This document shows, one piece after another, positions 6,043 through 36,149 of a stretch of 64,000 nt of DNA (the first letter of the stretch is position 1; each line of letters opens with the position of its first letter). The position numbers were made by a program, and so were the translations under genes. The DNA comes from Frankiaceae bacterium (GTDB lineage: Bacteria; Actinomycetota; Actinomycetes; BP-191), in NCBI GenBank assembly GCA_030840645.1, contig JAVEEC010000051.1:33326-97325 (forward strand), written 5' to 3'. Below the pieces are notes generated by a model. The model was not told the DNA's origin. It made no database searches and saw only the letters and a list, made by a program, of their open reading frames with translations.

Positions 6043-7000
6043 GACGACCTCCCGGGGGAACGATGGCGTCGATCGCCGCCAGATCGTCGTCGGTCGGCTC
6101 CCAGACCCCGGCGGCGGCGTTGGCCAGGACCTGCTCGGCCCTGGTGGCGCCCGCGATGACGGACGCGACCGCGGGCTGGGCGGCGAGGCCGCCGATGGCG
6201 ACGTGCAGCAGGGTGACACCGCGCTCGGCGGCGAGCTTCTCCAGCGCCTCGACACGGTCGTACGTCTCGTCGGTGAGCAGGGTCTCGGCGCGGGCGGTGT
6301 TGCGGCCGAGGCGGGAGTCGGCCGGCGGGGCGGAGCCGCGGCGGTACTTGCCGGTGAGGACGCCGTTCGCGAGCGGGAAGTACGGCAGCTGGCCGACGCC
6401 GTAGTGCTCGCAGGCGGGGATCACCTCGGCCTCGGCGGCGCGGTTCAGTAGGCTGTACTCGTTCTGCGCCGAGACGAACCGCTCGCGCCCGTCGACGGAC
6501 GCGGCCCAGTCGGCGTCGGCGACCTGCCAGCCGGCGAAGTTGCTCGACCCGACGTAGCGGACCAGCCCTTCGCGAACGAGCTCGTCCAGCGCGGCGAGCG
6601 TCTCCTCGACCGGGGTCACGCCGTCCGGCTCGTGGTACTGGTACAGGTCGATCCAGTCGGTGCGCAGCCGCCGCAACGACGCCCGCACCGCGCTGCGGAC
6701 GTACCGCCGGGAGCCGCGTGCCTCGGGGCCCGCGCCGGGCATCGCCATGCCGAACTTCGTGGCGAGCACGACCTGGTCCCTGCGCGCGCCGAGCGTCTCG
6801 CCGAGCAGCTCCTCCGAGCCGCCGCCGTTGCCGTAGATGTCGGCGGTGTCGAACAGCGTGATGCCGCACCCGATGGCGGTGTCCACCACCGCACGGGCGT
6901 CGGCGTCGGTGGTGCGGGAGCGGAAGTTGTTGCAGCCGAGGCCGACGACGGAGACGGTGAGCCCCGAGTCGCCGAGCTGGCGGTAGCGCATCGCGTCCAT
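6035..7000 (-). CDS. Aldo/keto reductase
   Basis: A 321-aa (beta/alpha)8 NADPH-dependent oxidoreductase. The catalytic tetrad is visible: Asp and Tyr in DTADIYGNG, Lys in VLATKFG and His in LYQYHEPD. The family-typical start RYRQLGDSGLTVSVVGLG is present. The start may be the first Met or MRYRQLG three codons later. The sugar- or beta-subunit-like subclass is possible, but the substrate is unknown. The class II aldolase gene is 9 bp upstream, suggesting a small carbonyl/sugar metabolic operon. Confidence 0.92.
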   Translation of the reverse strand: MDAMRYRQLGDSGLTVSVVGLGCNNFRSRTTDADARAVVDTAIGCGITLFDTADIYGNGGGSEELLGETLGARRDQVVLATKFGMAMPGAGPEARGSRRYVRSAVRASLRRLRTDWIDLYQYHEPDGVTPVEETLAALDELVREGLVRYVGSSNFAGWQVADADWAASVDGRERFVSAQNEYSLLNRAAEAEVIPACEHYGVGQLPYFPLANGVLTGKYRRGSAPPADSRLGRNTARAETLLTDETYDRVEALEKLAAERGVTLLHVAIGGLAAQPAVASVIAGATRAEQVLANAAAGVWEPTDDDLAAIDAIVPPGGRHG

Positions 7001-7009
7001 GACGCGACC

Positions 7010-7621
7010 CTACGTCCGCAGCGACCTGCGGCGCCGGTACGCGGCGGCGAGGGCGGCGTTCGCCTCGGCCGGGACGGGTACGGCGCCACCGAGCGCGAGC
7101 GCGCCCCAGATCGACTGCGCGCCGCGTTCCACGACGCCTGCAACGTGCAGCGCGTCGGCGGGCGACGTACCGACGGCGACCAGGCCGTGCGACGCGAGGA
7201 GCACCGCGCCGACCTCGCGCAGCAACTCGGATGCGTTGCGCGCCAGCGCTTCCGAGCCGCTCGGCGCGTAGGCCGCGCAGGGGACCGCGCCGCCGACGTA
7301 GATCGCGAACTCGTCCACTGCGGCCGGGATGACGGATCGCGCGCAGGCGAACATCGTGGCGTACGGCGGGTGCGCGTGGACGACGCCGCCGATCTCCGGG
7401 TACGCCCGGTAGACCGCGAGATGCAGCGCCCGCTCGCTCGACGGCTCGCGGGCCCCGGCGACGACGTCACCGGCGAGGGAGAGGACGACCACGTCGTCGG
7501 CCTCGCCCGCGGCGGTGATCGTGACGAGGTCACCGGAACGCCCCGAGACGTTGCCCGCGGTGCCGGACGCGAGGCCGAGCGCGAGCATCGAACGGGCGGC
7601 GGCGAGGACCTCGTCGCGCAC
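7010..7621 (-). CDS. Class II aldolase/adducin family protein
   Basis: A 203-aa protein with zinc ligands HAHPPYA near residue 90 and SHGLVAVG near residue 150, plus the N-terminal GLASGTAGNVSGR phosphate-binding loop. These are hallmarks of the L-fuculose-phosphate aldolase/ribulose-5-phosphate epimerase family. The substrate is not determined. It is upstream of, and probably cotranscribed with, the aldo/keto reductase. Confidence 0.88.
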   Translation of the reverse strand: MRDEVLAAARSMLALGLASGTAGNVSGRSGDLVTITAAGEADDVVVLSLAGDVVAGAREPSSERALHLAVYRAYPEIGGVVHAHPPYATMFACARSVIPAAVDEFAIYVGGAVPCAAYAPSGSEALARNASELLREVGAVLLASHGLVAVGTSPADALHVAGVVERGAQSIWGALALGGAVPVPAEANAALAAAYRRRRSLRT

Positions 7622-7643
7622 GGCGCACCTCCCACGAACGCAG

Positions 7644-7678
7644 CGGAGGCCCCGGGGCGGGTTCGCCCGGGGCCTCCG
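7644..7678. terminator. Hairpin terminator after the HbhA-like gene
   Basis: CGGAGGCCCCGGG pairs perfectly with CCCGGGGCCTCCG across a 9-nt loop. It lies 16 bp after the stop codon of the leftward HbhA-like gene and before the aldolase start. A GC stem without a T-run is common for actinobacterial terminators. Confidence 0.65.
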
Positions 7679-7694
7679 TACGGTACTGAGGCTG

Positions 7695-8096
7695 CTAGCC
7701 GATCTTGCCGGCGGCGCTGTCGACGGCCTTCGCGGTCGCCTTGGCGGCCTTGGTAGCCGACGTGGTCGCGGCCTTCGCCTGCGACTTCGCGACCTTGACC
7801 TGCGCCTCGGCCTTCTTGGTCGACGGGCTGCGGCGGATGGCGCCGACCAGCTTCTCGCCGCGCTCGACGAGGTCGCCGTACGCGGTGAACGCCCGGCCGG
7901 TCAGCTGCGTCGCGAACATTTCGACGTCGCCGCGCAGGCCCTTGACCTTGGCGGGCAGCTCGGCGACGAGCGCCGTGGTCTTGGGCACGAACTGGCTGGC
8001 GACCTGCGTCGGCAGCTCCTTGATGTTCTCGACGGCGAGGTCGCCCGCGCCGACGAACGCGTACAGCGGCTTGCGGGCCTCGGTGGTGATGGCCAT
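7695..8096 (-). CDS. Heparin-binding hemagglutinin-like protein (HbhA family)
   Basis: A 133-aa protein beginning ARKPLYAFVGAGDLAVENIKELP, the conserved start of HbhA-like proteins, followed by a helical middle and a Lys/Ala-rich tail (KKAEAQVKVAKSQAKAATT). Mycobacterial HbhA (about 199 aa) is a surface adhesin whose Lys-rich tail binds heparan sulfate; this one is shorter. AGGAGG lies just before the ATG. An XRE regulator lies directly upstream, as with Rv0474-hbhA in M. tuberculosis. In an environmental organism the role may be chromosome, lipid-body or polyphosphate association rather than adhesion. Confidence 0.75.
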   Translation of the reverse strand: MAITTEARKPLYAFVGAGDLAVENIKELPTQVASQFVPKTTALVAELPAKVKGLRGDVEMFATQLTGRAFTAYGDLVERGEKLVGAIRRSPSTKKAEAQVKVAKSQAKAATTSATKAAKATAKAVDSAAGKIG

Positions 8097-8235
8097 GGGT
8101 GGTGCCTCCTGGTCTCGGTGGTTACGCGTCCCGGTCGGTCGGCGATCCGGGCGCGGCGTGCGGGTGGTACGGCGGGAGGAGCGAGGTGTAGCCGGGTGAG
8201 GGCTCGCGTGGTGCCGCGCTCCCTCCCCCCGCCGG

Positions 8236-8691
8236 CTATTGGGGTACGTCGGCCTCCACGGGCCGCGCGGTGGTGGCGGTCCGCTTGCGCGCGGGCTTCG
8301 GCTCGGGCTCCGGTGCCGGCTCGGCGACCGGTGGCGGGCTCTGGCGCTCGCCGTTGTTCTCCTTGCGGAACGAGTCGTAGATCTCGAGCAGCACCTGCTT
8401 CTGCCGCTCGGTGACCCACTCGTCGCGCAGGATCGCGCCGGGGACGTCGGTGTCGGCGTCGCGCTCCTCGAGGATGCCGGCCTGGACGTACAGCGCCTCG
8501 GCCGAGATGCGCAGCGCCTTCGCGATCTGCTGGAGGATCTCGGCGCTCGGCTTGCGGAGGCCGCGTTCGATCTGGCTGAGGTACGGGTTGCTGACGCCGG
8601 CCAGGCGGGCGAGCTGGCGCAGCGAGATCGACGACGACATCCGCTGCTCGCGGATGTAGTCCCCGAGGTCGCGCACCTTCAACGTCGCCAT
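8236..8691 (-). CDS. XRE-family transcriptional regulator
   Basis: A 151-aa protein with an N-terminal helix-turn-helix (residues 8-65; 'SLRQLARLAGVSNPYLSQIE', then RGLRKPSAEILQQIAKAL), a middle helix and a disordered Pro/Glu/Lys-rich tail. The start MATLKVRDLGDYI is preferred over the longer ORF because -35/-10 boxes sit so close to it that the mRNA would be leaderless. Paired repeats overlap that promoter, so autoregulation is likely. It is the counterpart of Rv0474, upstream of hbhA. Confidence 0.88.
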   Translation of the reverse strand: MATLKVRDLGDYIREQRMSSSISLRQLARLAGVSNPYLSQIERGLRKPSAEILQQIAKALRISAEALYVQAGILEERDADTDVPGAILRDEWVTERQKQVLLEIYDSFRKENNGERQSPPPVAEPAPEPEPKPARKRTATTARPVEADVPQ

Positions 8692-8698
8692 GCAACGG

Positions 8699-8741
8699 AC
8701 GCTAACCGATGGTGCTAGCAATTGCAAGCAGGCGTGCTAGC
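8699..8741 (-). promoter_or_regulatory. Promoter and operator of the XRE-hbhA unit; probable leaderless start
   Basis: On the minus strand a TTGCAA (8727-8722), a 17-bp spacer and a TAGCGT (8704-8699) make a near-ideal sigma-A promoter. The ATG begins 7 nt after the -10 box, so the transcript probably starts at or next to the ATG. Two copies of GTGCTAGC (8712-8719 and 8734-8741) are 22 bp apart, two helical turns, flanking the -35 box. They suggest an operator for the adjacent XRE protein. The upstream copy contains the stop codon of the asparaginase gene. Confidence 0.6.
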
Positions 8742-9699
8742 GCTGAGGTGAGACCTGCCTCACCGCGGGCAGCGGCACCGCCCGGACCTCGCCGACGCGG
8801 ACGCCGCCGCCGAGCACCGGGGGCGACGCCAGGTCGTCCAGAACGGTGTCGTCACCCGTCGCGCCGAGCGCGCGCAGCGCCGCGACGATCACCGGCGGGC
8901 GGGCGCGGGCGGCGCCGTCCTCGATCTTCAACGCCACCGCCGTGCCGTCGGCGAGGGCCGCCGCGTAGACACCCTCGGCGCCGTCCTTGGCGATCAGCCC
9001 GGGAACGGCGCCGATCAGCCTGGTCACGTCGTGCCCGGTGCCGCCGATCAGCTCGGGATGGGCTCGCATCGCGTGCGCCACAGCGCTTTCCGGCGTACCC
9101 GAGGTTGCGCACGCCACCCGGCCGAACGCCCGCGCGAGGCCGGTGAGCGAGAGCGCGAAGATCGGCGCGCCGCAGCCGTCCACGCCCGTCGCCGTGACGT
9201 CCTCGCCGGCGAACGCCGCCACGACGGAACGCAGGTGGACCTGCAACGGGTGGTCCGCGGCGAGGTACCCGTCGAGCGGCCAGCCCTGCGCGACGCAGGC
9301 CGCGAGCATCGCCGCGTGCTTGCCCGAGCAGTTGTGCAGAACCCGCAGCGGCTCGCCGCCGCCCCCGCCCGCCGGCCGGTCCTGCGGGCAGCGGAGCGCG
9401 GACTCGGGAACGCCCGCGCGACCGAGCAGGTCGCGGACCACCTCGACGTGGACCGGCTCGCCCCAGTGGCTCGCGGTCGAGATCGCGACGTGCCTGGAGT
9501 CGAGGCCGAACGCCTCGACGATCCCGAGCCGCAGCATCCCCACCGCCTGCATCGGCTTGTTGCAGGACCTCGGGAACGTGGGCGCGGCGACCGTTCCCAC
9601 GGAGAGGAGGACGTCGCCGGACGGCGACAGCGCGACGACGCTGCCGTGGTGCCGGCTCTCGACGAAGCCCGAGCGGACGACCTCCGCGACGACGGTCAC
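8737..9699 (-). CDS. L-asparaginase II family protein
   Basis: A 320-aa protein of the asparaginase II family (PF06089 type). Family blocks include VVRSGFVESRHHGSVVAL at the start, SCNKPMQAVGM, SASHWGEPVHV-like 'STASHWGEP', NCSGKHAAMLAAC and GVDGCGAPIFALSL. The GTG start overlaps the upstream HD-GYP stop as GTGA, so the ORF track's longer version is not used. Expected reaction: asparagine to aspartate plus ammonia. The linkage to signalling genes is probably operon convenience. Confidence 0.9.
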   Translation of the reverse strand: MTVVAEVVRSGFVESRHHGSVVALSPSGDVLLSVGTVAAPTFPRSCNKPMQAVGMLRLGIVEAFGLDSRHVAISTASHWGEPVHVEVVRDLLGRAGVPESALRCPQDRPAGGGGGEPLRVLHNCSGKHAAMLAACVAQGWPLDGYLAADHPLQVHLRSVVAAFAGEDVTATGVDGCGAPIFALSLTGLARAFGRVACATSGTPESAVAHAMRAHPELIGGTGHDVTRLIGAVPGLIAKDGAEGVYAAALADGTAVALKIEDGAARARPPVIVAALRALGATGDDTVLDDLASPPVLGGGVRVGEVRAVPLPAVRQVSPQR

Positions 9700-10430
9700 G
9701 AGCGCGGGCCGAACCCCACCGCCCGGCCGTTGTCGCCCCGCAGCTCGGCGCACATGGCGACGAACGCGGTGACGACGTCCGGGTCGAACTGCGTGCCGCC
9801 GCAGCGGTCGATCTCGGCCACGGCGTCGTCGAACGGCAGCGCCCGCCGGTACGGCCGGTCCGAGGTCATCGCGTCGAACGTGTCGCACACCGAGAAGATG
9901 CGCGCGCCCAGCGGGATGCCCTCCTCGGCCAGGCCGTCGGGGTACCCCTTGCCGTCCCAGCGTTCGTGGTGGCAGCGGATGATGTCGACGGAGTCGTTGA
10001 GGAACTGGATCGGGGCGACGATCTGCACGCCGATGATCGGGTGCGTCTTCATCACCTCGTACTCCTCCTCGGTCAGCGGCCCCGGCTTGCAGAGGATCGA
10101 CTCGGGGATGCCGACCTTGCCGACGTCGTGCAGGAGGAAGCCGTAGGACAGGGCCGGGCCGATCTCGACGCCGGGCATGACGACGCGGGCGAGGGCGCGG
10201 GCGTAGTCGTGGGTGCGGTCGAGGTGCTCGCGGGTCGAGGAGTCCTTCGCCTCGACGATGAACGCCAGCGTCCGCACGGTCGCGAGGTAGCTCTCCTGCA
10301 GTCGGGTCAGCGCGTCGGCCAGCTCCTCGGAGCGGGTGCGCTCCGCCTGGTACAGCGCGTTGACGTCGCGCGCGAAGACGACGAGCTGCTCCTTGGCCCT
10401 GGCGAGCTCGGCCGCGTCGTCAGGCTCCAC
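9696..10430 (-). CDS. HD-GYP domain protein (putative c-di-GMP phosphodiesterase)
   Basis: A 244-aa protein. Residues 1-50 form a coiled coil (ELARAKEQLVVFARDVNALYQ); an HD-GYP domain follows with HDVGKVGIP near residue 118 and HHERWDGKGYPDGL near 170, both motifs intact. The family hydrolyses cyclic-di-GMP. It overlaps the receiver-domain gene by 11 bp, so the two may work as a split version of the usual receiver/HD-GYP response regulator. An RsiG-like c-di-GMP-binding protein is two genes upstream. Confidence 0.9.
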   Translation of the reverse strand: MEPDDAAELARAKEQLVVFARDVNALYQAERTRSEELADALTRLQESYLATVRTLAFIVEAKDSSTREHLDRTHDYARALARVVMPGVEIGPALSYGFLLHDVGKVGIPESILCKPGPLTEEEYEVMKTHPIIGVQIVAPIQFLNDSVDIIRCHHERWDGKGYPDGLAEEGIPLGARIFSVCDTFDAMTSDRPYRRALPFDDAVAEIDRCGGTQFDPDVVTAFVAMCAELRGDNGRAVGFGPRS

Positions 10431-10800
10431 CGATCGGCTCCTCGTCGAGGAGGCGGAACAGGTCGAGCCCGCTGAACGGCTTCACGATGTAGCCCACGGC
10501 CCCCGCCGCCTCGGCCGCGTCGCGGGCGGCCGCGTCGGCGCGGGCGGTGAGCATCACGACGCGCGGGCCCTCGTCGCCGTAGGCGTCGCGCAGCGCGCGG
10601 CAGACCGCGAACCCGTCCATCCCCGGCATCATCGCGTCGAGCAGCACGACGTCGGGGCGGACCTTGTCCGCCAGCGCCAGCGCGGTGTCTCCGTCGGACG
10701 CGTGGTGCACCTCGACGTCGTCCAGCTCGAGCATCGTGACCACGACGTCGCGGGTGATCGCCTCGTCGTCGACCACCAGGACGACCCGCCGGGGCCGCAC
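10420..10800 (-). CDS. Stand-alone response regulator receiver protein
   Basis: A 126-aa CheY-like receiver: acidic pair in VVDDEAITRD, phospho-acceptor Asp in VVLLDAMMPGMDG, Thr in VMLTARAD and Lys in YIVKPFSG. It has no output domain; its 3' end overlaps the HD-GYP gene, which is likely its partner. No histidine kinase is nearby. The start codon is GTG. Confidence 0.92.
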   Translation of the reverse strand: MRPRRVVLVVDDEAITRDVVVTMLELDDVEVHHASDGDTALALADKVRPDVVLLDAMMPGMDGFAVCRALRDAYGDEGPRVVMLTARADAAARDAAEAAGAVGYIVKPFSGLDLFRLLDEEPIGGA

Positions 10801-10805
10801 GGCGC

Positions 10806-11369
10806 TCAGGCGCCCGCGGGCGGACCGGTCAGCAGGTCCGAGGGGTCGGCCTCGCCGTCCCGGTAGCGGCGGGTGATCTCCGCCGCGCAGATGTCGAGGA
10901 TGGCGAAGATGCGGCGGCGCCTGCTGGAGAGGCCGGCCTCCTCGCGTTCGAAGACGGCCAGCTCGGAACGCAGCTCGTCGTCGGTGCGCGCGCTGACGTC
11001 GCTGAGGTCCACGTCGGCGACGAGCGACTCGACGTAACGCCGGTGCTCGTCGGCGCGCGACGGCTCGATGGCCGTGTGCCGGCCGAGGCCGCGCGGCGCC
11101 CGCCTGGGACCCGAGTCGCCCAGGATCTTCGGCAGCTCCGCGAGCAGCGACCCGGAGCCGTCGTCCGCGCGGTGTGCCAGCTCGGCACGCAGGATGTCGA
11201 CGCGGCCCTGGACGAGCCGGCGCAGGTAGGAGACGTCGGTCTCCTCCTGCTCGGCCTCGTGGCGGTGCTCGCGGAGGTCGGCGAGCGACATCGTCTCGAG
11301 GCCGGCGAGGAAGTCGTCGTCGAGGACGCGGTCACTGCGGCGGCTGCCCCCGGTGCTGCCCTCGGTCAC
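10806..11369 (-). CDS. rsiG: RsiG-like c-di-GMP-binding anti-sigma factor candidate
   Basis: A 187-aa helical protein. Its first helical block contains ETDVSYLRRLVQGRVD, an exact match to the E(X)3S(X)2R(X)3Q(X)3D motif by which Streptomyces RsiG binds c-di-GMP. A second copy is EAGLSSRRRRIFAILD, with Phe in place of Gln. The family uses the two helices to clasp a c-di-GMP dimer and sequester the sigma factor WhiG. No whiG is in the window, so the partner is inferred. The GTG start overlaps the upstream gene as GTGA. The adjacent HD-GYP gene supports a c-di-GMP module. Confidence 0.75.
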   Translation of the reverse strand: MTEGSTGGSRRSDRVLDDDFLAGLETMSLADLREHRHEAEQEETDVSYLRRLVQGRVDILRAELAHRADDGSGSLLAELPKILGDSGPRRAPRGLGRHTAIEPSRADEHRRYVESLVADVDLSDVSARTDDELRSELAVFEREEAGLSSRRRRIFAILDICAAEITRRYRDGEADPSDLLTGPPAGA

Positions 11370-12214
11370 TGCTCTCGCCCCTCTCGTCCGGCGCTCATGC
11401 CCAGCAGGTCGCGCGCCTCGCGGGGAGAGAGCGGGGGGCGTTGGGCGAGCGTAGCCAGCGTAGCCGCTCGGTCGACAAGCTGGGCGTTGTCGCGTACGGG
11501 CTGTCGTGCCGCGAACGTCAGCGTGTCCTCCATGCCGACCCGCAGGTGCCCGCCGTGCGCCAGCGCCGCGAGCATGACCGGGATCGTCGTCCGGCCGACC
11601 CCCGTCGCCGAGAACGTCGCGCCGTCCGGCAGCGCGGCGACGCACGCGGCGAGCTGCGCGGGCGTGCCCGGCATCGCGCCGGGGACGCCCATGACCAGGT
11701 CGACGTGGACGTGGCCGCCCGGCGGCGGGCCGTAGGCGTCGACCAGCCGGGTGACGGTCGCGAGGTGGCCGGGCTCGAAGCACTCGAACTCGGGAACGAT
11801 GCCGCGCTCCTGCATCCGCGTGTAGAGCGCGGCGATGAACGCCGGGCGGTTCATGAACACGTCGTCGCCGAAGTTCACCGTGCCGCAGGTCAGGCTGGCC
11901 CCGTCGGGGCGCGCGTCCAGGACCGCGAGGCGGGCCTCCTCGGGGTCGTGCACGCCGCCGCCGGTCGAGAGCTGCACGATCAGGCCGGTGGTCTCGCGCA
12001 GCGCGGTGACGGTCTCGGTGAGCGCGCCGACGTCGAGCGACGACGCGTCGTCGGCGTCGCGCAAGTGGACGTGGATCAGCGCCGCGCCCGCGGCCTCGCA
12101 CTCCTTCGCCGTACGCAGCAGCTCGTCCAGCGTGGTCGGCAACGTGGGCGCGTCGGCCTTCGCGGTCTCCGCGCCCGTGGGCGCGACGGAGATCAGCGTT
12201 CCCGGCATGCCCAT
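11366..12214 (-). CDS. BKACE family (3-keto-5-aminohexanoate cleavage-type) enzyme
   Basis: A 282-aa TIM-barrel protein (DUF849/BKACE). Metal ligands are visible in IHVHLRDADD near residue 48 and HGGHLRVGMEDTL near 225, and the catalytic region QLSTGGG is present. The family condenses a beta-keto acid with acetyl-CoA to give acetoacetate and a new CoA ester; the kce enzyme of lysine fermentation is the prototype, but most members act on other beta-keto acids. The substrate is unknown here. It is the first gene of the overlapping signalling chain. Confidence 0.88.
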   Translation of the reverse strand: MGMPGTLISVAPTGAETAKADAPTLPTTLDELLRTAKECEAAGAALIHVHLRDADDASSLDVGALTETVTALRETTGLIVQLSTGGGVHDPEEARLAVLDARPDGASLTCGTVNFGDDVFMNRPAFIAALYTRMQERGIVPEFECFEPGHLATVTRLVDAYGPPPGGHVHVDLVMGVPGAMPGTPAQLAACVAALPDGATFSATGVGRTTIPVMLAALAHGGHLRVGMEDTLTFAARQPVRDNAQLVDRAATLATLAQRPPLSPREARDLLGMSAGREGREQ

Positions 12215-23848: not shown

Positions 23849-23980
23849 CTAGAACGAATGACGCCCCTCGGACCGTGCGATGTCCTGCGAGTCGGGACCG
23901 TCCGGGGCCGCGAGGTCGAGCAGCAGCGACAGCGGCACGCCGCTGCGCAGGCAGTCGTACGCGGAGAGGGATCCCCCCAT
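23849..23980 (-). CDS. Small protein (43 aa) with strong RBS
   Basis: Not in the ORF track. ATG GGG GGA TCC follows GGAAGGA at good spacing. The peptide MGGSLSAYDCLRSGVPLSLL continues LLDLAAPDGPDS and ends with SEGRHSF. One Cys is present; there is no signal peptide. I have an impression that other actinobacterial short ORFs share a GVPLxLLLDL pattern, but cannot verify it. It lies between the dehydrogenase and the small Cys-rich genes. Confidence 0.5.
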   Translation of the reverse strand: MGGSLSAYDCLRSGVPLSLLLDLAAPDGPDSQDIARSEGRHSF

Positions 23981-24173
23981 GGTGGTCTTCCTTCCGTCGG
24001 GGCCGTGCCCTCAATGCTTCGGGTCCCGGCGCAGGCGGAATGACGCCCGTACGCGTGAACGGCCCCTAGGGCCGAACGGCCCTCTAGCGGCCGGGGGCTA
24101 CTCGGCGCCGCGCGGGCGGGGCATACTGCCACGAACCTGGCGCATCCCCTACAGATGACCCATGGAGTCCGAC

Positions 24174-24374
24174 ATGCCACGAATCCTCCTGGTGGCCGCG
24201 GCCTGTGCCGCTCTCGTCCTCGGCTCGGCCGGCGCCGCGTCCGCCCACCCCGGCGGGAGCTGCGAGGGCGTCGTCGACGTCTTCTGCCGCGGCCACGTCT
24301 GCCAGCCCGACGAGCTCGACTGCGGCCTGGTCCCGCCCTGCGTGCTCTGGGTCGCCGGCGTCTGCCTCTACTGA
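24174..24374 (+). CDS. Small secreted Cys-rich protein (66 aa)
   Basis: The ATG at 24174 is 6 bp from GGAG, so it is preferred over the ATG at 24162. The signal peptide is MPRILLVAAACAALVLGSAG with cleavage near ASA. The mature part is about 40 residues with six Cys (SCEGVVDVFCRGHVCQPDELDC...), suggesting three disulfides. No family is recognised. The RiPP-precursor-like gene follows 56 bp later on the same strand. Confidence 0.7.
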   Translation: MPRILLVAAACAALVLGSAGAASAHPGGSCEGVVDVFCRGHVCQPDELDCGLVPPCVLWVAGVCLY

Positions 24375-24430
24375 GCCGCGACCCGCGCACCCAGCCCACC
24401 GCCCAACCACCCCGACGAACGGAGCCCGTC

Positions 24431-24616
24431 ATGCGCAAGCTCACCCTCACCCGCGAGCACCTGACCGAGCTGACCAGCGGCGAGCTGACCGGCGTCGTCG
24501 CCGCCAGCGGCGTCACCTGCGTGCAGCTCGCCTGCGTGCGCGACCTCAGCGACCGGCTGGCGGCGTGTGACAGCCTGCTGCGGCCGTGCATCAGCGCGAC
24601 CACCTGTACCTGCTGA
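24431..24616 (+). CDS. RiPP-precursor-like peptide (61 aa)
   Basis: The start is ATG CGC AAG CTC after GGAG. The N-terminus MRKLTLTREHLTELTSGELT resembles RiPP leaders of the KLTLxREXLTELTxxEL type, and GVVAASG could be the leader end. The last 33 residues hold seven Cys counting TCVQLAC, CDS, RPC and TTCTC, plus several Ser/Thr. No lanthionine synthetase, YcaO, radical-SAM or transporter gene is nearby, so modification enzymes would have to be elsewhere. Alternatively it is a disulfide-rich cytosolic or exported peptide. Confidence 0.6.
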   Translation: MRKLTLTREHLTELTSGELTGVVAASGVTCVQLACVRDLSDRLAACDSLLRPCISATTCTC

Positions 24617-33446: not shown

Positions 33447-34157
33447 GTGACACGTCCACGGGCAATGGCCGTCGCTGTCGTCGCCGCCCTCGTCGCCGTC
33501 GGGTGCGGCGGCTCGACACGAACGGCGCAGCCCGAGGCGTCGAGCGCGACGCCTAGCCCCACGCCGGTGTCGCCTTCTGCCACGCCCTGGCCCGGCATGA
33601 CGGTGCGGGTATCCCCTTCCCCTACACCCTCGGCCACTTCACGAGCCCGAGCCCCCGTGTCGGATGTGCGGCGCCTGCCACGCATCGTTTTGAGCCTAGG
33701 GTCGGTGCCCAGCGGCTTCGCTTTGACCCTCGACCGGTCGTGGACGACGGACGAGCTCGTCGACCAGGGAACGTATAGCTCGTCCGAATTGCAGGGTTGG
33801 GGCTATCTGGGCGGCTACGAACGGGAGTTCGAGCGTGACAACGAGTCCGACCCCGTCAAGATCTCGTCCGACGCCGGCGCGTACGCCACGTCACAGGGAG
33901 TCGCACGCGCCTTTCAACGGAATGTGACGCTTTGCCAAAACGACGGATGGGATCTCATCGACGCCAACGTCGGGCTCGGCTCTGAGAGCATGCTGTGCGC
34001 TCGGGACGTGAGCTTCCGCGGCTACGAAGCGCGGGTGCACTTCGTGATCTGGTACCGCGGAAGGGTTAAGAACTCAATAGCGGTCACCGCCTTGCTCGGG
34101 AAGAGCACGCCCGATCTCGCGCTGAGGCTCGCCCGGCGGCAGGCCGCGAACTACTGA
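33447..34157 (+). CDS. Lipoprotein of unknown function (236 aa)
   Basis: The GTG at 33447 begins VTRPRAMAVAVVAALVAVGC, a lipoprotein signal with lipobox VAVGC. A Ser/Thr/Pro linker follows (residues 25-70). The folded part contains LSLGSVPSGFALTLDRSW, a DNESDPVKISSDAGAYATS region and two Cys likely to pair (VTLCQNDGW, MLCARDV). The layout resembles actinobacterial surface lipoproteins that sense or bind ligands. Its 3' end overlaps the end of the convergent TIR gene by 7 bp. Confidence 0.7.
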   Translation: MTRPRAMAVAVVAALVAVGCGGSTRTAQPEASSATPSPTPVSPSATPWPGMTVRVSPSPTPSATSRARAPVSDVRRLPRIVLSLGSVPSGFALTLDRSWTTDELVDQGTYSSSELQGWGYLGGYEREFERDNESDPVKISSDAGAYATSQGVARAFQRNVTLCQNDGWDLIDANVGLGSESMLCARDVSFRGYEARVHFVIWYRGRVKNSIAVTALLGKSTPDLALRLARRQAANY

Positions 34158-35581
34158 AGCTCCGTGAGAAGTTCCTTCAGGCGGCTGTTGTAGCCGCGGG
34201 CGTCGACGAGTCCCGGCCGCTTCATCGCGTATGCCCTGACATCCTTGCCGTTTCGATCTATGATCACGACCCAGTCAATGACCTGCACTTGGTCTAGTGT
34301 GTTAGCCGACCGCCCAGACGCCGCGTAGGCCGCCCGAAGGACGAGGCGAGCAGGGAAGTACGGCGTTGCCGGGTTCGGTTTTCCGGGCATCAGAATGAAA
34401 TCCTGTGTGGCGAATGTCTGAAGTACCTGGTGCGGCTTGCTTTCGTTGCGGATGGATATCGGACTCAAGTAAACGTGGTCGTACAGCCCGCGTGCGTAGT
34501 CGTGCGGCGCTCCAGCCGGTCTGGCGACCGTACCCTCCATCGTCGGAACCCTGGTGCTCTCTGGGCTGAGGAGGGCCTGGATGTCGTAGTTGTCGTCCTC
34601 CGAGTTCCACGCGACCACGAACGGGCGCGGGAAGAGGTTCCGGTCGAGTCCAACCTCAGTCAGCGCGCCGAGGATTTCGTCGCCGGCAATGGCGTTGACG
34701 TCGTGGTACTCGATGGAGTCGAAGGTGAAGCTCTCGGGATACGCGTTGTCCGGCACCGGGCCGGCGTTGGTCTTTTTAACCGCGATCGGATCGAACGTGA
34801 ACACGGGGACGAGACGACCCGATGTGTCCGGGTCATAGATGACTAACCGCCCGTGCGCTACGGGATCATGCCGGAGGACCGCGTCGATAGGCGTGGCGAT
34901 CACGACCGTCGACAGCCCGCCGTCGGGGCGCAGTTGAGCCGTCTCGACCTTGGCGCCGAGGTGGTCCAGAGCCAGAAGGCGAACGATGAGCTTGCGCTGC
35001 GCTTCAGCGGTTGGCACTCGTGGGGGAACGGCAACGGACAGAGCGATTGCGGCGACGAGCAAGGTCAGGGTGAGCCACCGGTGTTGCTGTCGGCGGACAA
35101 CGGGCCGCGAAGTGCGGGGTCGGTTGAGCAACCGCAGCACCAGGGTGACCAAGCGTCCGGTGGCCTCGTCAGCCCTCTTGCCGAATAGGTCGACGACGGT
35201 CAACGACAACAGCGTGCGTCCGCCGCCCAGCTCCAACGCGGGCAGCTCAACGTCTTCGAGCCGGATCGGGATCAGCCACGGCACATCAGGCCGACGCTGC
35301 CGCATCTCATCGAGCGCGAGGTTCAGTTCTTCCCAATGGTGTCCACCACTTCCCAGGCTGGCAGCAGAAAAGCAGGCCAAGAACACCAAGGTGTCCTCAG
35401 TGATGGCTTGACGGATCTTCAATCGCCAGTCCTCACCAGGCCACAGGTCCTTGGTGTTGCGCCAGACGCGGATGCCGGCGTCCTCCAGGGCTCGCTGAAG
35501 CTTGTCGACTGCCGCCGAGTCCGCGGATGCGTAGGACAGGAATGCGTGGCCAATGGGTGCCTGCGCGTCGACAGAGGTCAC
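34151..35581 (-). CDS. Membrane-anchored TIR domain protein (476 aa)
   Basis: The GTG at 35581 aligns its start with the second TIR gene. Residues 10-150 are a TIR domain: GHAFLSYASADSAAVDKLQ, VWRNTKDLWPGEDWR, FLACFSAASL and 'HHWEELNLALDEM', the last supplying the Glu used by NAD-cleaving TIRs. A membrane segment (WLTLTLLVAAIALSVAV) follows near residue 185, and then about 280 residues with a beta-rich, probably external domain (VFTFDPIAVKKTNAGPV, YLSPISIRNES). Bacterial TIR proteins commonly deplete NAD+ or make signalling nucleotides in anti-phage defence. The C-terminal domain is not recognised. Confidence 0.8.
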   Translation of the reverse strand: MTSVDAQAPIGHAFLSYASADSAAVDKLQRALEDAGIRVWRNTKDLWPGEDWRLKIRQAITEDTLVFLACFSAASLGSGGHHWEELNLALDEMRQRRPDVPWLIPIRLEDVELPALELGGGRTLLSLTVVDLFGKRADEATGRLVTLVLRLLNRPRTSRPVVRRQQHRWLTLTLLVAAIALSVAVPPRVPTAEAQRKLIVRLLALDHLGAKVETAQLRPDGGLSTVVIATPIDAVLRHDPVAHGRLVIYDPDTSGRLVPVFTFDPIAVKKTNAGPVPDNAYPESFTFDSIEYHDVNAIAGDEILGALTEVGLDRNLFPRPFVVAWNSEDDNYDIQALLSPESTRVPTMEGTVARPAGAPHDYARGLYDHVYLSPISIRNESKPHQVLQTFATQDFILMPGKPNPATPYFPARLVLRAAYAASGRSANTLDQVQVIDWVVIIDRNGKDVRAYAMKRPGLVDARGYNSRLKELLTELQ

Positions 35582-35651
35582 GGACCGAGGGTACCGATGC
35601 ATCGCGTCCCCCCGCGCCGGGGACCAGACGCATCTCGAAAGGAGCAACGGG

Positions 35652-36149
35652 CTACGCGCCGTTCCCCGGCCCACCGACCCCCCGATTGCCTAGCAGGCGA
35701 CGGACCGTCGCGACGAGTCGGGCAGTGTTCTTCTCGATGTGTTCGCCGAACAAGTCCAGCCGCTGCAACGAAGACAGCATCCGGCCGCCCCCGATATCTC
35801 GGTCGGGGATGTCGCACTCATCGAGTCTGACTGGAATCAGCCACGGCTCGTCGGGTCGGCGTAGTCGCAACTCGTCGGTCGCGAGAACCAGCTCCTCGTT
35901 CTGGTAGCTGCGGTGCCGCGCCACGCTGGCTTTGGAGAAGCAGGCAAGGAACACGAGCGCGTCAGCGCCGATCGCCTGGCGGATCTTTACTCGCCAGTCC
36001 TCACCGGGCCACAAGTCCTCGGTGTCGCGCCAGACCGGGATACCCGCGGCCGCGAGCGTCGCCTGCAGGCCGTCGATCGCGGCAGCATCCTCGCGGACGT
36101 AGGACAGGAACGCGTGCCCACGGGGCGTTGGCGTCGCGGCAGAAGTCAT
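35652..36149 (-). CDS. TIR domain protein (165 aa)
   Basis: The start MTSAATPTPRGHAFLSY at 36149 is preferred. The whole protein is one TIR domain, parallel to that of the downstream gene: GHAFLSYVREDAAAIDGLQ, VWRDTEDLWPGEDWRVKIRQ, FLACFSKASVARHRS and YQNEELVLATDEL with the probable catalytic Glu. It lacks the membrane segment and C-terminal domain. The two are paralogues in tandem, 70 bp apart, probably one operon. Confidence 0.8.
   Translation of the reverse strand: MTSAATPTPRGHAFLSYVREDAAAIDGLQATLAAAGIPVWRDTEDLWPGEDWRVKIRQAIGADALVFLACFSKASVARHRSYQNEELVLATDELRLRRPDEPWLIPVRLDECDIPDRDIGGGRMLSSLQRLDLFGEHIEKNTARLVATVRRLLGNRGVGGPGNGA

What the first reader, a model, noticed from the sequence alone, without database searches (positions are those of the whole stretch)
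23849..24616. Cluster of three tiny genes including a RiPP-precursor-like peptide
The 61-aa peptide has a leader-like MRKLTLTREHLTELTSGELT start and a core of Cys, Ser and Thr ending CISATTCTC. Beside it is a secreted six-Cys peptide and, on the opposite strand, a 43-aa ORF with one Cys and a strong RBS. No modification enzyme is within about 5 kb. It may be an orphan precursor modified by an enzyme elsewhere, or a new type of disulfide peptide.
Basis: partly seen in the sequence, partly recalled or inferred. Interest (0 to 1): 0.65.

Follow-up and report, generated by a model that had tools for sequence, protein, structure and literature searches.

The report
Scattered class I lanthipeptide precursor genes
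The tiny Cys/Thr-rich gene is one of 27 sibling genes strewn over this actinobacterial genome (60 and 54 in two sister species), each apparently feeding a different core peptide on the same leader tag to one remote enzyme set that makes thioether-ringed lanthipeptides, a class I counterpart of the marine prochlorosins.

Summary
All three ORFs are real. The 61-aa ORF (24431-24616 +) is not a lone orphan. A profile of its relatives finds 27 copies in this genome and 60 and 54 in two sister genomes (141 in all, 55 loci), with nothing convincing elsewhere in samples of about 395 genomes each from the class and the phylum. The copies share a leader (MxRxLxLxRETLxELTxxELxxVVGG/GA) and carry divergent cores (13% Cys, 21% Ser/Thr). 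Each genome has a LanC-LanB-(short membrane protein)-C39-transporter operon flanked by such precursors. LanC is the only lanthionine cyclase of the window's genome, so no LanM is present; there is no YcaO. In 93 non-redundant cores, Ser/Thr is enriched 4-6 residues upstream of Cys but not downstream, as lanthionine rings require. Best explanation: a class I lanthipeptide precursor modified in trans by one LanBC/LanT set. It works like the class II prochlorosins, but with class I enzymes and an L1a-like leader. Modification and cleavage are inferred, not shown. The six-Cys neighbour belongs to a genus-restricted secreted family that tends to sit beside precursor genes. The 43-aa neighbour is an unrelated small protein family spread across the class.

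The parts
24431..24616 (+). 61-aa class I lanthipeptide precursor (LanA-like) gene
   Evidence: Member of a 141-gene family in three genomes; GGAG ribosome site 24421-24424
24431..24505 (+). Leader region MRKLTLTREHLTELTSGELTGVVAA; end placed by comparison with the GG/GA sites of paralogues
   Evidence: Invariant L4, L6, L11, L14 and near-invariant E9, E13, L19, V22 in alignment A1
24506..24613 (+). Core region SGVTCVQLACVRDLSDRLAACDSLLRPCISATTCTC: 6 Cys, 8 Ser/Thr
   Evidence: LxxC[DE]SxLRPC[IV]S shared with three G001 cores
24174..24374 (+).
   Evidence: Alignment A4 with six invariant Cys; homologues only in the three genomes; often beside precursors
23849..23980 (-). 43-aa conserved small protein, judged not part of the lanthipeptide system
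   Evidence: Family in 56 of 395 genomes of the class; stays on the dehydrogenase side in G001 and G002

Best explanation
The 61-aa gene encodes a class I lanthipeptide precursor. It is one of 27 such genes in this genome, most of them far from any modification enzyme. One LanB (Ser/Thr dehydratase) and LanC (cyclase) recognise the shared ~25-residue L1a-like leader and install (methyl)lanthionine rings in whatever core is attached. The C39-peptidase ABC transporter of the same operon then cuts after the GG/GA/AA site and exports the product. Shown here: the gene family, the enzyme operon, the shared leader, the absence of other lanthionine synthetases in G000 and G002, and lanthionine-type Ser/Thr-to-Cys spacing in the cores. 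Inferred: leader binding, modification in trans, cleavage, export, and the role of the products (probably secreted ringed peptides acting on neighbouring cells).
For: 27/60/54 paralogues with a clear E-value gap. Conserved leader, divergent Cys/Ser/Thr-rich core. LanB with PF04738+PF14028, LanC, and a C39 transporter in each genome, matching solved LanB and LanC structures by sequence. Family members flank the operon. One operon-side paralogue passes the NCBIfam lant_leader_L1a 'class I lanthipeptide' cut-off, another comes close. LANC_like occurs only once in G000 and once in G002, so LanM is excluded there; no YcaO. Ser/Thr enriched at -4 to -6 of Cys and not downstream in 93 non-redundant cores. 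Related LanBs in other phyla lie beside similar leaders.
Against: The window leader ends VVAA, rare among the 141 (most end GG or GA), so C39 cleavage is less certain for this copy. The window peptide itself gives no family hit. No expression or mass data. Most precursors are unlinked, so the enzyme-substrate pairing rests on leader similarity. G000 has two LanB copies (C97, and truncated C9; 87% identical) and 7% estimated contamination, so which enzyme acts is unclear. Radical-SAM maturases were not searched.
Confidence: 0.85

Rival explanations
1. The window copy is a displaced, decaying precursor: it keeps the leader but is no longer expressed or modified, and only operon-adjacent and array copies work.
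For: It sits alone at a site that is variable between species; its cleavage site AA is atypical.
Against: Intact frame, ribosome site and invariant leader positions. Its core motif LRPC[IV]S is kept in three G001 genes at about 50-57% overall identity, which suggests selection.
Confidence: 0.1
2. The 61-aa peptide is a disulfide peptide, not a lanthipeptide.
For: Six Cys; a six-Cys secreted peptide is encoded next to it.
Against: No signal peptide; a leader shared with operon-adjacent LanA-like genes; directional Ser/Thr spacing; leaders almost free of Cys.
Confidence: 0.04
3. Another RiPP enzyme (radical SAM, or in G001 the class III LanKC) modifies part of the family.
For: G001 has a LanKC and additional LanC genes; radical-SAM maturases were not searched.
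Against: YcaO absent; LanM and LanKC excluded in G000 and G002 by the single LANC_like match. The precursors adjoin LanBC in all three genomes.
Confidence: 0.05
4. An addition to the best explanation: the six-Cys secreted peptide next door is a functional partner of the precursor, for example a co-acting peptide or a self-protection protein.
For: 57-bp gap on the same strand. Four of seven strong loci of the genus-restricted six-Cys family lie within 5 kb of precursors, three within 560 bp. Three of the four LRPC-core precursors have a six-Cys gene nearby.
Against: Three six-Cys loci have no precursor on their contig and most precursors have no six-Cys gene. The single-sequence structure model was uninformative.
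Confidence: 0.25

Closest known systems
Prochlorosins / synechococsins (ProcM/SyncM, class II lanthipeptides of marine picocyanobacteria; PMC10783134, PMC12328550, PMC9872173)
   Same: Tens of precursors per genome, isolated or in tandem, a conserved leader with a GG-type site, hypervariable Cys/Ser/Thr cores, and one enzyme set serving many unlinked substrates.
   Different: Here LanB plus LanC (class I) instead of the single LanM enzyme ProcM; a ~25-residue L1a-like leader instead of a long Nif11 leader; an actinobacterial host; trans modification not yet demonstrated.
Class I lanthipeptides with L1a leaders (NCBIfam NF038153 lant_leader_L1a)
   Same: Leader motif LxLxKETLxxLxxxELxxVxGG beside LanB, LanC and often a C39 transporter; an operon-side paralogue passes the cut-off.
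   Different: Other LanB-bearing genomes examined have a median of 1 leader-family peptide, at most 8 outside Kordia, whereas this genus has 27-60, mostly unlinked.
Leader-rich class I genomes of Kordia (Bacteroidota)
   Same: A related LanB, and 18-30 leader-family peptides per genome; named as RiPP-rich in PMC11118758.
   Different: Distant lineage, different core sequences; whether their copies are unlinked from the enzymes was not examined here.
Nisin system (NisA/NisB/NisC/NisT)
   Same: LanB and LanC chemistry; sequence matches to solved NisB (4wd9) and NisC (2g02).
   Different: Nisin has an FNLD leader, its precursor beside the enzymes and a separate protease NisP (own knowledge); here a C39 transporter would cut the leader and most precursors are unlinked.

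Membership tests
Class I lanthipeptide system | Full-length LanB dehydratase (PF04738 + PF14028) | tested here: met
   526 and 208 bits for G000 C97; one in G001 and one in G002
Class I lanthipeptide system | Stand-alone LanC cyclase encoded next to LanB | tested here: met
   138 bits, 430 aa; CYG and CHG motifs seen in the sequence
Class I lanthipeptide system | Precursor with leader and a Cys plus Ser/Thr core near the enzymes | tested here: met
   Family members flank the operon in all three genomes
Class I lanthipeptide system | This window precursor encoded in the enzyme gene cluster | tested here: not met
   Contig C11 has no LanB or LanC match; the window peptide would be a trans substrate
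Class I lanthipeptide system | (Methyl)lanthionine rings in the product | not testable with these tools
   Only indirect support from Ser/Thr-to-Cys spacing
NF038153 lant_leader_L1a | Score above the curated cut-off (22 bits) | tested here: inconclusive
   Operon-side paralogues 22.7 and 20.2 bits; window peptide no hit
Double-glycine (C39/PCAT-processed) leader peptides | GG/GA/GS at the leader end and a C39-peptidase transporter | tested here: inconclusive
   C39 transporter present in all three genomes; most leaders end GG or GA, the window copy ends AA
Prochlorosins | Class II LanM (ProcM-like) enzyme | tested here: not met
   A single LANC_like protein, the stand-alone LanC, in G000 and in G002
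Prochlorosins | Nif11-type leader | tested here: not met
   No Nif11 match for the window peptide or the two operon-side paralogues scanned; leader about 25 residues
Prochlorosins | Tens of precursors, many unlinked from the enzyme, with conserved leader and variable core | tested here: met
   27/60/54 precursors in 13/26/16 loci; 8/5/14 within 10 kb of LanB

The most novel reading that the evidence does not exclude
A natural combinatorial class I lanthipeptide system of prochlorosin scale: one LanBC pair modifies tens of structurally unrelated, unlinked precursors in trans, in a lineage where secreted six-Cys proteins evolved beside some precursor genes as partners or self-protection factors.
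Probability: 0.5. Interest if true: 0.75.

Novelty: new variant of a known kind. Interest (0 to 1): 0.62.

Why it matters
Large-scale natural substrate promiscuity is best documented for the class II ProcM-like enzymes. A class I system with 27-60 natural substrates would supply a LanB/LanC pair already selected for tolerance, plus about 140 natural cores from which to learn its rules. It would also allow a test of whether unlinked precursor radiation arose independently in two lanthipeptide classes. The 2020 RODEO survey (PMC7268733) looked only within seven genes of LanC, so scattered precursors like this one would be missed.

Tried and rejected
Family libraries gave no hit above cut-off for any of the three ORFs. 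YcaO as the enzyme: absent. LanM as the enzyme: excluded in G000 and G002. Class III LanKC: found only in G001, so it cannot explain the family in the other two. The structure model of the six-Cys peptide had mean pLDDT 49 and was not used. Merging C9 and C97 into one operon was rejected: their shared parts are only 85-87% identical.

Full report
Observation. The three ORFs exist as described. The 61-aa ORF at 24431-24616 (+) has a GGAG ribosome site and reads MRKLTLTREHLTELTSGELTGVVAA-SGVTCVQLACVRDLSDRLAACDSLLRPCISATTCTC. The six-Cys ORF more likely starts at 24174 than at 24162, judged by its relatives and the GGAG upstream. The 43-aa ORF on the minus strand has a strong ribosome site. None matches Pfam, NCBIfam or PHROGs above cut-off. 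Ten neighbouring ORFs between 19.5 and 35.7 kb were scanned: eight match ordinary families (aminomethyltransferase-like, aminotransferase, Na/H exchanger, 2-hydroxyacid dehydrogenase, sugar transferase, NlpC/P60, epimerase, acyl-CoA dehydrogenase), one is a TIR-domain protein and one has no match; none is a RiPP enzyme.

A family, not an orphan. A search of 98 related genomes with the peptide found seven matches in the window's own genome (G000) and nine and five in two sister genomes, G001 and G002. Reading 20-kb stretches around them revealed whole tandem runs. A profile of 84 members (A1) then gave 27 members in G000 (plus one chance match at E 0.09), 60 in G001 and 54 in G002, with no match between E 7e-8 and 0.09. 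All 141 were recovered from the fetched stretches. They form 13, 26 and 16 loci, from singletons to runs of 14 genes, and only 8, 5 and 14 lie within 10 kb of a LanB. Among 395 genomes of the class and 397 of the phylum, the profile finds nothing beyond the genus except three borderline matches at E 6e-4 to 9e-4 (those two searches scored only the best 16-17 candidates per genome).

Leader and core. The leader is conserved (consensus MxRxLxLxRETLxELTxxELxxVVGG; L4, L6, L11 and L14 invariant) and the core is not. Random pairs are 53% identical in the leader and 25% in the core. In 67 adjacent same-strand pairs the figures are 64% and 37%, with leader above core in 66. Leaders hold 0.14% Cys; cores hold 12.6% Cys and 20.8% Ser/Thr. 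Most leaders end GG or GA; the window's VVAA is rare. Some cores recur between species. The window's core keeps LxxC[DE]SxLRPC[IV]S in three G001 genes (C27:40539, C42:128718, C17:80467), which argues that this particular core is under selection.

The enzymes. G001 and G002 each have a LanC gene followed by LanB, a ~145-155-aa protein with a likely membrane segment (no family match; a shortened HlyD-like partner is my guess), and a C39-peptidase ABC transporter; G000 shows the same order on contig C97, cut off inside the transporter. LanB carries both PF04738 and PF14028 and matches NisB and other solved dehydratases; LanC matches solved cyclases, NisC included. Precursors of this family flank the operon on both sides in G001 and G002, and in G000 on contigs C9 and C97. 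LANC_like occurs once in G000 and once in G002, so no LanM, LanKC or LanL was found there. G001 also has a class III LanKC and extra LanC-like genes. YcaO is absent from all three. Radical-SAM maturases were not searched.

Is it lanthionine chemistry? In 93 cores less than 50% identical to one another, Ser/Thr is enriched 4, 5 and 6 residues before Cys (z 5.0, 4.5, 3.0 against shuffles that keep Cys in place) and depleted 2 residues before it (z -5.9). Pooled over -3 to -6, none of 1000 shuffles reaches the observed value. Downstream at +3 to +6 there is no enrichment (595 of 1000 shuffles reach it), although +2 is enriched (z 6.3). (Methyl)lanthionine rings usually run from an upstream Ser/Thr to a downstream Cys with a few residues between (own knowledge), so this is indirect support; residual common descent of cores could inflate the z values. 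Separately, leader-like ORFs lie beside related LanB genes of other phyla in 34 of 80 loci, against none in reversed sequence (the profile was built partly from those loci, so this is a consistency check only).

How unusual? With a broader leader profile (A5), 50 other genomes that carry a related LanB hold a median of 1 leader-family peptide, at most 8, except three Kordia genomes with 18, 25 and 30. By the same measure this genus has 27, 60 and 53. Kordia is already described as RiPP-rich (PMC11118758). I found no paper in the held library describing a prochlorosin-like radiation for class I; most subscription papers are not held, so this is not proof of novelty.

Position of the window copy. 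G001 contig C20 is collinear with the window on both sides, but it has about 28 kb between the 43-aa gene and the sugar transferase, where the window has 640 bp holding the six-Cys gene and the precursor. G001 carries a precursor at C20:84280 instead, beside the acyl-CoA dehydrogenase gene, where the window has none. Scattered copies therefore seem to come and go at otherwise syntenic places.

The neighbours. The six-Cys peptide belongs to a genus-restricted family: eleven strong members in seven loci, six invariant Cys in the nine members aligned, and a signal-peptide-like start. Four of those loci lie 60 bp, 81 bp, 558 bp and 4.6 kb from precursors, more than random placement would be expected to give, but the role is unknown. 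The 43-aa protein belongs to a small-protein family (GVPLxLLLDLAxPxGPDS) found in 56 of 395 genomes of the class and is unrelated to the lanthipeptides.

Limits. The three genomes are fragmented drafts; G000 has 7% estimated contamination and two LanB-transporter copies about 87% identical, so the precise enzyme serving the window peptide is uncertain. Nothing here shows expression, modification, cleavage or activity.

Noticed in passing
window 23849-23980 (-): 43-aa protein of an undescribed small-protein family (GVPLxLLLDLAxPxGPDS) found in 56 of 395 genomes of the class; no Pfam, NCBIfam or PHROGs match.
   Followed up: partly
window 24174-24374 (+); also L028, L157, L026, L159, L214, L215: Genus-restricted family of secreted six-Cys peptides with CxGxVDxxC...C...C...CxxW/YV...C, four copies in tandem at G001 C42:123.4-124.1 kb, often next to lanthipeptide precursors.
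   Followed up: partly
window 34151-35674 (-): TIR-domain protein (PF13676, 7e-21), in a stretch between two genes that are close together in G001, where G001 has a lanthipeptide precursor; possible defence or NADase gene.
   Followed up: no
L023 (G000 C9) and L040 (G000 C97): Two LanB-transporter copies about 87% identical in one assembly with 7% estimated contamination: either a recent second operon or a second strain.
   Followed up: partly
L041 about 6984-11596 (G001 C1:77-79.5 kb): Class III LanKC (804 bits, NF038151) beside a second LanC-like protein, found only in G001.
   Followed up: no
L030 18227-19791 (G001 C1:34.8-36.4 kb): A stand-alone second LanC directly beside one precursor gene, without LanB.
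   Followed up: no
L095, L106, L107 (Kordia genomes): 18-30 leader-family peptides per genome with a related LanB: a possible second, independent class I precursor expansion.
   Followed up: no
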